Shown here: positions 37,824 to 42,722 of the stretch, one piece after another | Position numbering within the stretch: the stretch's first letter is position 1 | Layout of the letters: each line of letters opens with the position of its first letter | From: Streptomyces sp. CA-278952 | GTDB taxonomy: Bacteria > Actinomycetota > Actinomycetes > Streptomycetales > Streptomycetaceae | DNA: 64,000 bases | NCBI RefSeq assembly: GCF_028747205.1 | Contig: NZ_CP112880.1 | Span: 5,456,001-5,520,000 of the forward strand | Direction of reading: 5' to 3' | Program-made: the position numbers and the translations under genes | Notes under the pieces: model-generated | The model's input: only the letters and a program-made list of their open reading frames with translations | The model's database searches: none | Told to the model about the DNA's origin: nothing

Positions 37824-38276
37824 TCAAGGGCCCTCGTTGCCGCCGGAGTTGTCCTCATCGCCCGCGAGCCGCTGGACCTCACCGTGGATGTGCTGGGTGA
37901 TGAGGTCACCGAGCGGGTCGGTCACGGTCCAGGAGTGCGGGCCGGGGTGGTGGTCGAGGTACGCGCACGAGGTGACGGCGCGAGTCACCAGGTCGCGGAG
38001 GAGGGCGGGGCACAGGGGCAGAGTGGCGAACCGGTAGACGCGGTGGGCGCCGGTGCCGGCCCACAGGAGCCACAAGTCCCGTTCGACGTCGGGGACATCG
38101 GCGGTCCAGATGTGGGCGGCGTGCTCGGCGGCCTCGTCGTGCTCGCCCAGTTCGCAGAGGAGGAAGTCGTCCTGGGCGAGGACGTCGGGCGGGTGCTCGG
38201 GACCGCCTTCCATGGTGGCGAGCGCGAGGAGCGCCTCGACGAACGGTACGACGGTGACGGCGGTGCATTGCAGCAC
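37824..38276 (-). CDS. Hypothetical protein downstream of the graspetide genes
   Basis: A 150-residue protein that I do not recognise. It is acidic and rich in Leu and His/Asp (FVEALLALATMEGGPEHPPD, LWLLWAGTGAHRVYRFATLP, QHIHGEVQRLAGDEDNSGGN), with no signal peptide or membrane helix. It lies on the same strand as tgmC but after an 18-bp terminator-like hairpin, so linkage to that operon is uncertain. The frame is open upstream through the methyltransferase, and GTG 38276 or GTG 38312 (inside the hairpin) are possible starts; GTG 38276 has GAAGAGA upstream. Confidence 0.6.
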   Translation of the reverse strand: MLQCTAVTVVPFVEALLALATMEGGPEHPPDVLAQDDFLLCELGEHDEAAEHAAHIWTADVPDVERDLWLLWAGTGAHRVYRFATLPLCPALLRDLVTRAVTSCAYLDHHPGPHSWTVTDPLGDLITQHIHGEVQRLAGDEDNSGGNEGP

Positions 38277-38300
38277 GGGGCAGGTCTCTTCCGTTCTCCT

Positions 38301-38345
38301 CCCGGAGGCCACGGGCGGTACGAAGCTCCGCCCGTGGCCTCCGGG
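38301..38345. terminator. Terminator after tgmC
   Basis: A perfect 18-bp stem (38301-38318 with 38328-38345, arm CCCGGAGGCCACGGGCGG) with a 9-base loop, 24 bp downstream of the methyltransferase stop. It defines the likely end of the graspetide transcript. Confidence 0.85.
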
Positions 38346-38368
38346 AAGTGCGGGGGGCGGGGCACGGT

Positions 38369-39517
38369 TCACATCGGCAGGTCCCACCCCGTACCGTCCT
38401 CGGAGCCGATCCACACCCGCTGCCCAGCAGCCGAGACCGTGATGCCGAAGCCCTCCTGGTGCGGCTCTCCCGCTGCCTGCCAGAGCCGGATCGCGGTCTC
38501 GACCCGGTCCCACAGGCGTACGGGACCGCGCTGTACGACCGTCCACCCGCCATCGGGCCCGAGTCCCGTCCGCGCCTGCGATCCGGTGGAGACGTCCCAG
38601 AGGATCTGCTCCGCCCCCGCCCCCATACGTTCCGCAGCCGGAGCGGCGAGCTGGGCCACCCAACTGCCCGTCCACGTCCCGATCATCGCCGGGTCGATCA
38701 GGCTCGGCCGCTCCTCGCCGGGCAGCAGGGGCAGGGCCGGGCGCGGCGGCCGGTCGTGCGGACGCGCGATCATGAAGCTGGTGAACCCGGGCAGAAGCCG
38801 TCCCGTCGCGCTCCCGGGCCCGGTCACGGTGAGGAGTGTCAGTCCGGACGCGTAGCCCCAGCCGGAAAGGGTGACCAGGATCTTCCCGCCCGGCTTCACC
38901 TGGTGCAGCCAGGCCAGGGGGACGTACCGGACCGAGCATGTGGCGATCAGGCGGTCGTACGTGCTCGGGCCCGCGTACGGGTCGCCCCGCAGACCGTCCC
39001 CGACGACCAGGCGCGGCGCGTACCCGGCTGACGCGAGGGCGGAGGCGGCGGCCCGGCCGACCACGGGGTCGTACTCGATGCTGGTGAGCCGGTCGTCGCC
39101 GAGGCGGTGCGCGCCGAGGGCGGTCGAGTAGCCGGTCCCCGTGCCGACCTCCAACACTCGTTGTCCCGCATCGACGTCGAGCTGCTGCCACATACGCAGC
39201 ACGAGCGACGGCAGGGTCGACGACGACGTCGGATCGCCCGTGACGCTGTCGTCCGTCACATCGCCGGGCCGGACACGGCCGTCGAGCTGGGTGATGAGTG
39301 TCCGGTCGGTGTAGATCCCTTCCAGCCACCCGTCCTCACCCTGGTGAACGGGCCGGTAGCTGGTAGGGGCGCTGTCGGGGACCCGCACGAAGTAGGAGCT
39401 GAGGAACAGCTCCCGAGGAACTGCCTGGGCGGCATCGTGCCATGCGGGGTCGGTGAGCGCCCCGTCCTCGGTGAGCGCGTCCGCGAGGACGGTACGCAGG
39501 CGAGCGGAGCTACTCAT
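38369..39517 (-). CDS. tgmC: Graspetide-associated PIMT-like O-methyltransferase
   Basis: A 382-residue methyltransferase related to protein-L-isoaspartate O-methyltransferase. The SAM motif EVGTGTGYS is at residues 123-131, and the PIMT-like substrate segment SSSTLPSLVLRMW precedes it; the C-terminal 150 residues are an extension seen in the ATP-grasp peptide maturase system methyltransferases. ATG 39517 overlaps the tgmB stop as ATGA. In characterised imiditide graspetides this enzyme methylates one Asp side chain of the crosslinked peptide, and cyclisation with the next residue then gives an aspartimide. The Asp-Gly in the neighbouring precursor fits that role; it is inference for this strain. 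Confidence 0.9.
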   Translation of the reverse strand: MSSSARLRTVLADALTEDGALTDPAWHDAAQAVPRELFLSSYFVRVPDSAPTSYRPVHQGEDGWLEGIYTDRTLITQLDGRVRPGDVTDDSVTGDPTSSSTLPSLVLRMWQQLDVDAGQRVLEVGTGTGYSTALGAHRLGDDRLTSIEYDPVVGRAAASALASAGYAPRLVVGDGLRGDPYAGPSTYDRLIATCSVRYVPLAWLHQVKPGGKILVTLSGWGYASGLTLLTVTGPGSATGRLLPGFTSFMIARPHDRPPRPALPLLPGEERPSLIDPAMIGTWTGSWVAQLAAPAAERMGAGAEQILWDVSTGSQARTGLGPDGGWTVVQRGPVRLWDRVETAIRLWQAAGEPHQEGFGITVSAAGQRVWIGSEDGTGWDLPM

Positions 39518-40479
39518 GTGTCGGAGCCTTTCTCCAGCTGATCGGCAAGCGCGTGGGCGATGCCTTGGGTGGTTTCGGGCGGCTGCCAGGCCCACTGCCC
39601 GTTGGGGTTGCATTCGAGGAAGTACCAGGTCCCGTCGCGGGCTACGGCGAAGTCGAACGCCCCGTAAACCAGACGGAAGTGGGCGAGGTAGGCGTGAACG
39701 GACTTTCCCACCGCTTCGGGTACGTCCACGGGTCCGCACCGCATGAGGTCCTGCCGGCGCCGCCAGTCCAGATCGGGACTGTCGATCCTCACCCCGGACA
39801 GCCACGGCCCGACGCCGGTGATACGCACGTCGAACGCCTTGTCCACCCGGGCCTGGAAGAGGTGGGGACAGACGGCCACGGCGTCGGTGATCTCCTGCTC
39901 ACGCACTTCGCGGACCCAGACGCTGTGAGGTTGGCCGGCCACGCGGTAGGGCGTGTTCCACACAGGCTTGTAGACAACTCCGCCTCTGTGCTGCGCGGTG
40001 AACTCCCGAGCATCCCGTACGACATGGGTGATCAGCGTGTCGGGGACCAGGAATCCGCACTGCTGTGCCGCCGCGAGCTGGGCGGGCTTGTACTCGGCCG
40101 CACGGTTGTTCCACGGGTGGTTGACGTAGTGCGCGCCCGGGAGGGACGCGAGGATGCCTCCGGTTCCCCAGAAGGACTGCTCGGCCGCGAACCGGCGGTC
40201 GCGCTCGTCCAGCCCCGAAGGGCCGTCGTACGGCGACGGCCTGCGGACCCAGACGGACCGCACCCGGGTGAGATCGAGGTCCCGAGTCGGGGTCCGCAGG
40301 AAACCCCGCTGAACGCCCGCGCTGTACGTGGCGGACAGCGAGGCCCCTGCGAGCAGGTCGGTGCCGGGGTCGAGGCGAACCACGGGCACGCGCCGCGCGG
40401 CGAGGACGCGCAGCACGAAGTCCGTGGTCACGTCGTGGAGATTGGTCAGAACCAGCACCGACCCGCGTCGGTCGTCCAT
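39514..40479 (-). CDS. tgmB: ATP-grasp ribosomal peptide maturase (graspetide ligase)
   Basis: A 321-residue ATP-grasp ligase of the graspetide/microviridin type. The N-terminal preATP-grasp part (VLVLTNLHDVTTDFVLRVLA) is followed by the ATP-grasp core: GGVVYKPVW (nucleotide-binding Lys), DKAFDVRITGVG (DxR motif) and FDFAVARDGTWYFLECNPNG QWAW (metal-binding ECNPNG). It activates Asp/Glu side chains as acyl phosphates and joins them to Thr/Ser hydroxyls (esters) or Lys (amides) of the precursor. ATG 40479 shares a base with the precursor stop (TGATG), so the two are co-translated. Confidence 0.93.
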   Translation of the reverse strand: MDDRRGSVLVLTNLHDVTTDFVLRVLAARRVPVVRLDPGTDLLAGASLSATYSAGVQRGFLRTPTRDLDLTRVRSVWVRRPSPYDGPSGLDERDRRFAAEQSFWGTGGILASLPGAHYVNHPWNNRAAEYKPAQLAAAQQCGFLVPDTLITHVVRDAREFTAQHRGGVVYKPVWNTPYRVAGQPHSVWVREVREQEITDAVAVCPHLFQARVDKAFDVRITGVGPWLSGVRIDSPDLDWRRRQDLMRCGPVDVPEAVGKSVHAYLAHFRLVYGAFDFAVARDGTWYFLECNPNGQWAWQPPETTQGIAHALADQLEKGSDT

Positions 40480-40757
40480 CAAGCGGACTGGTCCTGGTCG
40501 TAGGACTCGGTGCTGTCGGAGTCGGTCGCTCCACCCGGTGCCGCGCCGTCGCCCGGGGTGGTGTGGGTCGGCGTCAGCCCGCTGGTGCTGGTGCCGTGGC
40601 CGCCCATCTCGACCGCGCGGCCGTTCTCGTAGACGACCAGGGCGATCTGCGTATCGGTGTCGAGTACGGGGGCGAACTGCGGGACGGCGATGGTGTCCTC
40701 GTACGGTCCCATTCGGCTCGTGCCCCACGGTGCGGGCGTGTGCGTCATCGTGCTCAT
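40479..40757 (-). CDS. tgmA: Graspetide precursor peptide (putative ATP-grasp target RiPP)
   Basis: A 92-residue precursor. The leader (about 1-51) holds the conserved features of this family: PWG at 10-12, RMGPYEDTIAVPQFAPVLD at 15-33, TQIALVVY and GRAVEMGGHGTSTSG at 46-60. The core (about 52-92) has a hydroxyl-rich arm with Thr/Ser at 56-59, 62, 64, 66 and 67, a loop PGDGAAPGG (68-76) with Asp70-Gly71, and an acidic arm with Asp79, Asp81, Glu84, Asp87 and Asp89. This symmetry predicts a stem-loop of side-chain esters with Asp70 as the aspartimide site. ATG 40757 follows GGAGG at nine bases. Confidence 0.9.
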   Translation of the reverse strand: MSTMTHTPAPWGTSRMGPYEDTIAVPQFAPVLDTDTQIALVVYENGRAVEMGGHGTSTSGLTPTHTTPGDGAAPGGATDSDSTESYDQDQSA

Positions 40758-40771
40758 CTTCGTGTACCTCC

Positions 40772-40802
40772 GTGCTGGTGCTGGTGCTGGTGCTGGTGCT
40801 GG
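40772..40802. repeat. Hexanucleotide repeat in front of tgmA
   Basis: Five perfect copies of GTGCTG (CAGCAC on the coding strand) lie just upstream of the tgmA ribosome-binding site. Repeat-number change would alter the leader region of the transcript. Confidence 0.85.
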
Positions 40803-40838: not shown

Positions 40839-41029
40839 CTACGGCGGCGACCTCAGCCGCCGGACCAGCGCGTCCACCTCGGCCGAGCGCCAGTGGCCTC
40901 GCTGCGCGATCGCCGCGCCCAGCCCGGGGAAGTACCGGTCCCGGTAGGCGGGGTCGGCCTCGATGCGTACGCGCTCGGCGAAGGGCGAGGGCGGAGGTGA
41001 CGCAGGTGGGCGGCGCAGGGGGACTTCAC
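40839..41029 (-). pseudogene. Small coding-like frame without a start codon, possibly frameshifted
   Basis: Between the ATPase gene and tgmA the minus strand has a 45-50 codon stretch with near-complete third-position G/C, reading FAERVRIEADPAYRDRYFPG then AAIAQRGHWRSAEVDALVRR and ending at TAG 40839. No ATG, GTG or TTG is found in that frame, even far upstream into the ATPase gene. A GTG at 41029 overlapping the ATPase stop (GTGA) opens a different frame that ends at 40853 with non-coding-like codons. A single-base frameshift between the two would restore a protein of about 60 residues. It may be a decayed gene or use an unusual start. Confidence 0.45.
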
Positions 41030-41427
41030 GGGAGCCGGGTCCGGACGGGCAGGTGGACCCAGACGGTCTTTCCGGGGTTGCGCGGCCGTACGCCCCACCG
41101 CTCGGCGAGCGCGTCGACGATGAGCAGGCCCCGGCCGGACGTCTCGTCGTCGCTGGGCTTGCGGAGTTCCGGCATCAGCCACTGGTAGGAGTCGGCGACC
41201 TCCAGGATCAGTACGCCGTTCCGACGCCGTAAACCCAACTCGAAGTAGTCGCCGGTGCCTTTGGCATGGGCGAGGACGTTGGTGGCCAACTCGCTGGTGA
41301 TCAGCGTCGCGTCGTCGATGAGCCCGCCGAGTTTCCACCCGACCAGGACTGTTCTGACGTGCCGCCGAGCGGCGGAGACGGAGTCCCTGCGGACCCGGAA
41401 CCTCTTGCTGTCTGTGCGCCCGGACAT
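41026..41427 (-). CDS. ATP-binding protein (anti-sigma factor-like, GHKL fold)
   Basis: A 133-residue histidine-kinase-like ATPase domain protein of the RsbW-like group common in Streptomyces: SAARRHVRTVLVGWKLG, the N-box DDATLITSELATNVLAHAKG, the G1-box VADSYQWLMP and the G2-box ETSGRGLLIVDALAERWG. These proteins typically act with XRE/DUF397 neighbours, possibly by binding regulators or sigma factors. ATG 41427 follows GGGGGA; the 44 extra upstream codons of the open frame are not coding-like. It is divergent from the XRE gene and upstream of the graspetide genes on the same strand. Confidence 0.88.
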   Translation of the reverse strand: MSGRTDSKRFRVRRDSVSAARRHVRTVLVGWKLGGLIDDATLITSELATNVLAHAKGTGDYFELGLRRRNGVLILEVADSYQWLMPELRKPSDDETSGRGLLIVDALAERWGVRPRNPGKTVWVHLPVRTRLP

Positions 41428-41533
41428 ACGTCCCCCAAGGTCGTGGGCAGGCGGAACCAAGATCACCTGACGTGCTGGAATCAGCACTCGGTGTGACGTA
41501 ATCCACGCTAGAGGTCGAGTGAGACGTGAAGCA

Positions 41534-41602
41534 AGTGAATCTGTAGTGCAAACTTGCATTCACTCGTCCGAGGCAACTCGCTAGCGAGAGCGAACAGTTG
41601 CC
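41534..41602. promoter_or_regulatory. Nested palindromes in the divergent promoter region of the regulator genes
   Basis: Three structures lie between the divergent ATPase and XRE genes: AGTGAAT/ATTCACT (41534-41540, 41558-41564) flanking TGCAAACTTGCA (41547-41558); the perfect 12-bp palindrome CTCGCTAGCGAG (41577-41588); and GGCAAC/GTTGCC (41572-41577, 41597-41602) around it. The region is AT-richer than its surroundings. Binding by the adjacent XRE regulator is likely but not shown. Confidence 0.55.
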
Positions 41603-41634: not shown

Positions 41635-42516
41635 ATGCCCGCAGGTGGGAAGCCCACAGTGCGCAGTCGGAGGTTGGGTGCGGCACTCAAGCGGCTGCGG
41701 CTGAACGCGTGTCTGGACCAGGAGCACGCTGCCGATGCGGTGGCATGTTCCACGGCAAAGATCAGCCGCATCGAATCGGGCACGGTCAGCGCACGCGTCG
41801 GCGATGTGCGAGTGCTGCTTGATCTGTACGAGGTGGCGGATGTTGTCGAGCGTCAGCTGCTGGAGAAGCTGGCGCGGGACAGTAACAAGCGTGGATGGTG
41901 GATGGACTTCGATGCCGGGCAACCCGTGCGGGAGATTCTGGGCGACTTTCTTTCCCTGGAGTCCGACGCCACATATATCCGGACCTGGCAGCCGGTTCTC
42001 ATCCCGGGCCTCCTCCAGACTCCCGAGTACACGCGGGCGTTGACCGATGCCAGCCCGGACGTGATCAGTGAGGAAGCGGCCGACATGGTCGTCAAGGTCA
42101 GGCAGGAGAGGCGCCGTGTCTTCGAGGAGACGGGCGCACGGTTCGCTGCCGTGATCTGGGAGCCGGCGATCACCGGCCCGATGCCTTCCCCCGCTGTTCA
42201 CCGGGCTCAGCTCGCCCACCTCAACAAGATGGCCAAGCAGCCCAACATGACCATTCAGGTGCTGCCGCACACCGAGTGGGCTGCTGCGCGAGTGTCGCCC
42301 GCGTTCGTCGGGCTTTCGTACGCCCAGGAGACCTCCCCCGAAGTGATCGTTGTTGATGCGGTCGCCAACTGCATCATCCTCGAAGAGCGCGATGTCATGG
42401 CCAGCTACGTACACGCCTTTGACACGCTCAGGTCGGCAGCCCTCACGCGGACTGAGAGCATGGCTTTCATCGAGAAGATCGCGAGCAGTGTCGCCGCAGG
42501 GAACGAGGAACCGTGA
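41635..42516 (+). CDS. XRE family regulator with DUF5753 (Scr1-type) domain
   Basis: A 293-residue protein: helix-turn-helix at residues 10-65 (RRLGAALKRLRLNACLDQEH, then CSTAKISRIESGTVSARVGD) and a DUF5753 domain (TWQPVLIPGLLQTPEYTRAL, QVLPHTEWAAARVSPAFVGL) over the remaining 200 residues. ATG 41635 has a strong GGGAGAGGGGG upstream. It is followed, with a 4-bp overlap, by a DUF397 gene, the standard actinobacterial pair. Such regulators often govern development or specialised metabolism; here the divergent operon includes the graspetide genes. Confidence 0.92.
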   Translation: MPAGGKPTVRSRRLGAALKRLRLNACLDQEHAADAVACSTAKISRIESGTVSARVGDVRVLLDLYEVADVVERQLLEKLARDSNKRGWWMDFDAGQPVREILGDFLSLESDATYIRTWQPVLIPGLLQTPEYTRALTDASPDVISEEAADMVVKVRQERRRVFEETGARFAAVIWEPAITGPMPSPAVHRAQLAHLNKMAKQPNMTIQVLPHTEWAAARVSPAFVGLSYAQETSPEVIVVDAVANCIILEERDVMASYVHAFDTLRSAALTRTESMAFIEKIASSVAAGNEEP

Positions 42517-42722
42517 GCAGCCTGGACATAGTGACTTCCTTCGAGAGGTCTTCGTATTCCTCCGGGGGGCAGGGAACCGAGTGCGTCGAGGTCGCCCACA
42601 CCGCCGACGGCGGCCGGGCCGTCCGTGACAGCAAGGATCCGGCCGCCGGGCTCCAGTTCTACGGCCCCGGCCACTGGGCCGCGTTCATCGACGGTGTGAA
42701 GGCCGGCACGTTCGGCGGCTGA
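42513..42722 (+). CDS. DUF397 domain protein
   Basis: A 69-residue protein with the DUF397 signature (SSYSSGGQGTECVEVAHTAD, then RAVRDSKDPAAGLQFY and WAAFIDGVKAGTF). GTG 42513 overlaps the XRE stop as GTGA. DUF397 proteins bind their partner XRE regulator; the biochemical role is still unclear. Confidence 0.92.
   Translation: MSSLDIVTSFERSSYSSGGQGTECVEVAHTADGGRAVRDSKDPAAGLQFYGPGHWAAFIDGVKAGTFGG

What the first reader, a model, noticed from the sequence alone, without database searches (positions are those of the whole stretch)
38369..40757. Graspetide (imiditide-type) biosynthetic cluster
Three genes overlap by 1-4 bases: a 92-residue precursor with a conserved leader, an ATP-grasp ligase with KPVW, DVR and ECNPNG motifs, and a PIMT-like methyltransferase with SAM motif EVGTGTGYS. 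In characterised systems this trio makes side-chain-crosslinked peptides that are further turned into aspartimide. The product here is probably undescribed, since core sequences vary widely.
Basis: partly seen in the sequence, partly recalled or inferred. Interest (0 to 1): 0.82.

Follow-up and report, generated by a model that had tools for sequence, protein, structure and literature searches.

The report
Aspartimide graspetide gene cluster
Three overlapping Streptomyces genes encode a small peptide, an enzyme that staples it into a hairpin and an enzyme that then modifies one aspartate in the hairpin's loop; this kind of cluster is already well known and common, but I found no description of this version's finished peptide, and its sequence is unusually well preserved between species.

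Summary
In detail: on the minus strand, 40757-38369, a 92-aa precursor (TIGR04186), an ATP-grasp ligase (TIGR04187) and a PIMT-like methyltransferase (TIGR04188) overlap by 1 and 4 bases, all over curated cut-offs. This is a graspimiditide (group 13 graspetide) cluster, a class with over a thousand predicted members; 'imiditide-type' is the wrong name, since imiditides have no ATP-grasp step. Over 78 distinct cores it is nearly fixed, and under stronger purifying selection than the leader (pN/pS 0.19 against 0.38). I predict a hairpin with four or five nested esters (T56-D89, T58-D87, T64-D81, T66-D79, perhaps T62-E84) and an aspartimide at D70. No held paper text contains the core, but the albusimiditide paper could not be read, so identity with that product is not excluded. 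A side result: seven loci whose ligase falls in the same clade lack the methyltransferase, and six have a core without the long Asp-Gly loop (the seventh precursor is cut short), which supports D70 as the methyltransferase target. Ordinary class, new member.

The parts
40479..40757 (-). tgmA-type precursor gene, 92 aa (TIGR04186 GRASP_targ, PF14408 Actino_peptide)
40599..40757 (-). leader, residues 1-53, with the PAPWG motif near the N terminus; true cleavage site unknown
   Evidence: sequence; alignments; boundary set at the start of the invariant HGT core, inferred
40482..40598 (-). core region, residues 54-92: HGTSTSGLTPTHTTPGDGAAPGGATDSDSTESYDQDQSA
   Evidence: sequence; conservation
40524..40559 (-). 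predicted 12-residue loop, residues 67-78, holding Asp70-Gly71, the predicted methylation/aspartimide site
   Evidence: D-G in 73 of 73 cores of this loop length, and by eye in the 5 shorter ones printed there; known sites lie in the loop before Gly (PMC13001092); assignment inferred
39514..40479 (-). tgmB-type ATP-grasp ligase, 321 aa (TIGR04187, 403 bits)
38369..39517 (-). tgmC/PAMT-type O-methyltransferase, 382 aa (TIGR04188, 438 bits; match spans the PIMT domain and the C-terminal extension)
40767..40771 (-). likely ribosome-binding site GGAGG, nine bases of spacer before the precursor ATG
   Evidence: sequence
38298..38348 (-). strong GC-rich hairpin just after the methyltransferase stop (21-bp outer stem), likely operon end
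   Evidence: MFE -54.2 kcal/mol, z -5.9; no T run, so not called by the terminator scan; not clearly shared by relatives
41635..42516 (+). XRE-type HTH regulator with DUF5753, divergent; possible regulator
   Evidence: XRE/DUF397 pairs may co-occur with groups 11 and 13 (PMC13097080); present beside the cluster in L038 and L039
42513..42722 (+). DUF397 partner of the XRE regulator
41026..41559 (-). RsbW-like HATPase upstream of the precursor, same strand; belonging to the cluster not shown
   Evidence: shared with the two nearest relatives, in L039 in pieces

Best explanation
This is a graspimiditide (group 13 graspetide) biosynthetic operon. The ATP-grasp ligase, guided by the leader's PAPWG-type motif, activates acidic side chains in the C-terminal half of the core as acyl phosphates and joins them to Thr hydroxyls in the N-terminal half, giving nested omega-esters that staple a hairpin: T66-D79 (innermost), T64-D81, T58-D87 and T56-D89, with T62-E84 as a possible fifth. 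The PIMT-like enzyme then methylates Asp70 in the loop of the stapled peptide; loss of methanol gives an aspartimide at Asp70-Gly71, which may hydrolyse to isoAsp. A protease encoded elsewhere removes the leader. Shown here: gene identities, overlaps, conservation, selection on the core. Inferred from characterised relatives: chemistry, order of steps. Inferred from this sequence alone: the exact rung map. The 2026 review that I read in part names no biological function for the class; near-fixation of the core argues for a conserved target rather than a diversifying weapon.
For: Family scores over curated cut-offs for all three genes; A-B-M order in 23 of 23 named window-type loci, of which two have a broken B or M (L055, L059) and one a B match that starts at residue 46 (L048). 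In 78 distinct cores: T56, T58, T64, T66 78/78, T62 76/78; D79, E84, D87, D89 78/78, D81 77/78. Nested pairing gives residue sums 145, 145, 146, 145, 145, as in a regular antiparallel hairpin; fuscimiditide T3-D22 and T7-D18 (PMC12291112) also give a constant 25. Three Kitasatospora relatives (P0218, P0223, P0225) lack E84 but keep the four in-register acceptors and donors. Core more constrained than leader: mean identity 0.884 v 0.752, core higher in 200 of 210 equal-length pairs (of 253), pN/pS 0.185 v 0.378; window v S. sindenensis L039 core 10 synonymous and 0 non-synonymous changes. Seven loci of the same ligase clade (100/100) have no methyltransferase; six show a core without the long D-G loop.
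Against: No product has been seen for this cluster. The register regularity is weak on its own: 826 of 7056 random interior placements do as well. Residues that cannot be linked (H54, G55, G60, Y86, Q88) are equally invariant, and S57 and S59 nearly so (77 and 76 of 78), so invariance does not single out the linked residues and Ser could be a donor. Two cores lack T62 but keep E84 and one lacks D81 but keeps T64: no covariation. Many relatives were collected by words from the core itself, which inflates core conservation. One locus without a methyltransferase match, L070, keeps a loop Asp-Gly core.
Confidence: 0.9

Rival explanations
1. Same class, but the hairpin carries exactly four esters (T56-D89, T58-D87, T64-D81, T66-D79) and T62/E84 are structural or target-binding residues.
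For: E84 is the only off-register acceptor (sum 146) and is absent in P0218, P0223, P0225 while the other four pairs stay. Amycolimiditide has four esters, and the review gives Thr-Asp links for the four characterised members (PMC13003496, PMC13001092).
Against: E84 is 78/78 and T62 76/78 in the window-type cores; SsfA(BM) is thought to have five links (PMC10787088).
Confidence: 0.45
2. The core is the already described albusimiditide or a near copy, so the product is known.
For: Albusimiditide comes from S. albidoflavus J1074 (PMC13001092) and S. albidoflavus strains carry a window-type precursor, P0044.
Against: By my recollection (the paper is not held) albusimiditide belongs to the largest Streptomyces cluster and has four esters; the window type is a minor one (73 proteins at E<=1e-3, against 214 at E<=1e-8 for the genome's second precursor type).
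Confidence: 0.15
3. The operon is intact by eye but silent or decaying in this strain, so no peptide is made.
For: Two of 23 named relatives have broken ligase or methyltransferase genes (L055, L059).
Against: In the window all three frames are open and full length, and core changes from relatives are mostly synonymous.
Confidence: 0.07

Closest known systems
Fuscimiditide (ThfA/B/M, Thermobifida fusca)
   Same: precursor, one ATP-grasp, one PIMT homologue; nested Thr-Asp esters; aspartimide in the loop (PMC12291112)
   Different: two esters, 22-aa core, 10-aa loop; here four or five predicted rungs and a 12-aa loop
Amycolimiditide (AmdA/B/M)
   Same: stem-loop with nested esters and loop aspartimide; four rungs (PMC13003496, PMC13001092)
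   Different: its core letters were not in the text I read; here a possible Thr-Glu rung
Albusimiditide (S. albidoflavus J1074)
   Same: same class and genus (PMC13001092)
   Different: core could not be read; likely the commoner Streptomyces type by recollection, not tested
SsfA(BM) (Streptomyces sp. F-3)
   Same: same class and genus; five links suggested (PMC10787088)
   Different: its last 12 residues hold only four Asp and no Glu and the fifth link is thought to use the C terminus; here there is a Glu and the fifth acceptor would be that side chain
Imiditides / type I pamtides
   Same: PIMT homologue and aspartimide
   Different: the aspartimide is the sole modification (PMC13001092); here an ATP-grasp ligase is part of the operon

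Membership tests
Graspimiditide (group 13 graspetide) | precursor of the actinobacterial ATP-grasp-target family | tested here: met
   TIGR04186 75.3 bits, cut-off 25; PF14408 56.5 bits
Graspimiditide (group 13 graspetide) | adjacent graspetide-type ATP-grasp ligase with catalytic motifs | tested here: met
   TIGR04187 403 bits, cut-off 350; alignment to AMdnB, CdnC and three other PDB chains
Graspimiditide (group 13 graspetide) | adjacent PIMT homologue with C-terminal extension | tested here: met
   TIGR04188 438 bits over residues 11-367 of 382; PCMT domain 97-216; the structure model was too poor to use
Graspimiditide (group 13 graspetide) | Thr-rich then acid-rich core halves with an Asp-Gly in the loop between | tested here: met
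   window and the other 77 distinct cores
Graspimiditide (group 13 graspetide) | omega-ester links and aspartimide in the product | not testable with these tools
   needs co-expression and mass spectrometry
Imiditide / type I pamtide | aspartimide as sole modification, no ligase step | tested here: not met
   an ATP-grasp ligase gene overlaps both partners
Albusimiditide | same core sequence | tested here: inconclusive
   paper not held; core words in no held text

The most novel reading that the evidence does not exclude
The product is a pentacyclic graspimiditide with a Thr-Glu rung and an almost fixed mature sequence, kept by purifying selection across Streptomyces and Kitasatospora because it acts on a conserved internal or self target; and one sister lineage has turned back into a plain graspetide by losing the methyltransferase together with the aspartimide loop, so the two lineages make a natural test of what the aspartimide is for.
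Probability: 0.3. Interest if true: 0.55.

Novelty: new member of a known kind. Interest (0 to 1): 0.3.

Why it matters
The 2026 review of aspartimidylated RiPPs says that linking them to a biological function is the bigger remaining challenge (PMC13001092, passage). A core that is nearly fixed between species, and a close lineage without the methyltransferase, give a concrete pair to compare. As a compound it is one more member of a class with over a thousand predicted clusters.

Tried and rejected
Imiditide label: rejected, because an ATP-grasp gene is present. Core novelty by diversity: rejected. Hairpin register as proof of the rung map: too weak (826 of 7056). Covariation of donors and acceptors: none seen, the three losses among window-type cores are one-sided. 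Structure model of the methyltransferase from 12 close relatives: mean pLDDT 43, not used, no fold search made. Promoter and terminator scans found no site. The 150-aa open frame after the operon (37827-38276) has no Pfam match and, among the 23 loci, was matched only in L038. Precursor against the PDB: only one hit, E = 1. L035 first looked like a further cluster without methyltransferase (533 bases held); the longer stretch L163 of the same place shows the gene further on, so it was dropped from that list. The claim that the loop Asp was simply deleted in the MT-less lineage is kept as likely only: the Asp/Glu at the turn (D-S in 26, E-G in 5, one cut short, of 32 such proteins; P0209, of the same kind by eye, fell in the other bin) could be an ester acceptor after a 3-aa turn or a loop residue; the D/E exchange favours the acceptor. 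Whether MT-less forms are one of the published groups 8, 9 or 11, whose motifs occur with a shared leader (PMC8939145, passage), was not tested.

Full report
OBSERVATION. On the minus strand the precursor (40757-40479), the ATP-grasp ligase (40479-39514) and the methyltransferase (39517-38369) are open, full length and overlap by 1 and 4 bases. NCBIfam assigns the three to three linked families, each over its curated cut-off: TIGR04186, TIGR04187, TIGR04188; Pfam agrees. The ligase aligns over nearly its whole length with the PDB chains AMdnB (7m4s), CdnC (7mgv), 5ig8, 5ig9 and 9bou, including the D/E-x-R and E-x-N-x-x-G segments.

WHAT IT IS. Papers seen: PMC13001092 (first two of five parts and passages), PMC10787088 (first two of five parts), PMC12291112 (first part and passages), PMC13003496, PMC8939145, PMC13097080, PMC9576775 and PMC12262139 (passages only). 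They describe this trio as graspimiditides or group 13 graspetides: the ligase makes nested Thr-Asp esters, then a PIMT homologue acts on an Asp in the loop of the closed peptide. 1326, 962 and 1432 such clusters are reported by three surveys and four products are characterised (PMC13001092). PMC13097080 notes that XRE (DUF5753) and DUF397 genes may co-occur with groups 11 and 13; the window has such a pair, divergent, at 41635-42722.

HOW COMMON. The precursor is matched in 141 of 392 genomes of the genus, but only 7 of these, own genome included, have a match at 70% identity or more. The ligase family is over its cut-off in 91 of 131 genomes and in 87 of 147 drawn from the order. The window's own genome has a second such cluster at C1:5656425-5658742, same strand, about 160 kb away, with another core. 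Protein searches gave 73 relatives at E<=1e-3 for the window type and 214 at E<=1e-8 for the second type.

THE CORE IS NEARLY FIXED. From the window, 72 of the 73 proteins (P0073 has no core) and 24 loci I had 97 cores, 78 distinct. Five Thr (56, 58, 62, 64, 66) and five acids (79, 81, 84, 87, 89) are each present in 76 to 78 of 78. The loop D-G is in 73 of 73 cores of the usual loop length and, by eye, in the five shorter ones. P0002 and L039 have the window's core letter for letter, as has P0001, whose source is not given and which may stand for the window's own species. Among 23 distinct DNA sequences the core is more alike than the leader in 200 of the 210 equal-length pairs (of 253), with pN/pS 0.185 against 0.378. 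Caveat: searches found relatives partly by words of the core. Loci of this ligase clade that came in by the ligase search instead are few: own genome and G075 have the window core; G016, G017, G026 and G414 the MT-less core; G420 a precursor cut short. More distant precursors do vary: P0218, P0223 and P0225 have a longer loop and no E84.

RUNG MAP. Pairing outermost with outermost gives sums 145, 145, 146, 145, 145. The one off-register pair, T62-E84, is the one whose acceptor is missing in P0218, P0223 and P0225. So four rungs are likely and a fifth possible. For the genome's second type my hand-picked pairs give four equal sums (33). The statistical weight is low: 826 of 7056 and 36 of 1296 random placements do as well, and the pairs for the second type were chosen by eye.

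METHYLTRANSFERASE LOSS IN A CLOSE LINEAGE. Of 153 distinct ligase loci, 26 had no methyltransferase match downstream in the stretch held. One of these, L035, was a false negative: the longer stretch L163 has the gene. Seventeen are distant ligases (37-40% identity, one 42%) next to which my pattern found no precursor of this type. Seven (L015, L019, L020, L025, L029, L104, L107) are 69-71% identical to the window ligase and fall with the window type in one clade (28 rows, 100/100); they form one group (99/96), and whether it lies inside or beside the window type is unresolved (window type one side of a branch in 41% of bootstraps). All 23 outer rows of that tree have the methyltransferase (22, L035), so loss is simpler than repeated gain. 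In five of the seven genomes a whole-genome search found no TIGR04188 match near the ligase, and three of the five have none over the cut-off anywhere; the other two (L104, L107) have none in the 1482 bases downstream. Six of the seven cores (HQTSSGTSSSTSTSSADSYDSDDSSDSDHD and the like) lack the long D-G loop; L104's precursor ends early. A TPR protein gene and a ~90-aa open frame lie upstream in 6 of the 7. Against a strict rule, L070 has no match downstream or on its contig yet keeps a loop Asp-Gly core. Taken together this supports D70 as the methyltransferase's target.

EXPRESSION SIGNALS. GGAGG (40767-40771) lies nine bases before the precursor ATG; touching it upstream is a 5.2-copy hexamer repeat (40772-40802) that is not expanded in L038 or L039. 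A hairpin with a 21-bp outer stem follows the methyltransferase.

VERDICT. A real graspimiditide cluster, a new member of a known kind. The class is not surprising; the fixed core and the MT-less lineage are the parts worth a specialist's time.

Noticed in passing
40772-40802: Perfect hexamer repeat (CACCAG on the minus strand, 5.2 copies) touching the precursor's ribosome-binding site; not expanded in the nearest relatives L038 and L039. Could vary in length between strains and tune translation.
   Followed up: partly
L015, L019, L020, L025, L029, L104, L107: Graspetide loci with a ligase close to the window's but no methyltransferase; in six of seven a TPR protein and a ~90-aa open frame without Pfam match upstream, and Thr/Ser-Asp-rich cores.
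   Followed up: partly
G000:C1:5656425-5658742 (L005, L006), outside the window: Second graspimiditide cluster of the same genome, about 160 kb away, with the core HGTAKGTETSTITNSDSAPDQGHDQDSEQD.
   Followed up: partly
G000:C1:5446958-5447650, 3310062, 3849424, 4875014: Further PIMT-like genes below the TIGR04188 cut-off, possibly of lanthipeptide or pamtide clusters; one lies about 8 kb before the window start.
   Followed up: no
L055 (S. niveus NRRL 2466), L059 (S. inusitatus): Window-type clusters with broken ligase or methyltransferase genes, natural losses.
   Followed up: no
L163 (same place as L035): A repeated piece of the ligase's 3' end lies between the ligase and the methyltransferase.
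   Followed up: no
37827-38276 (-): 150-aa open frame after the operon, 80% identical in L038 at the same place, no Pfam family.
   Followed up: partly
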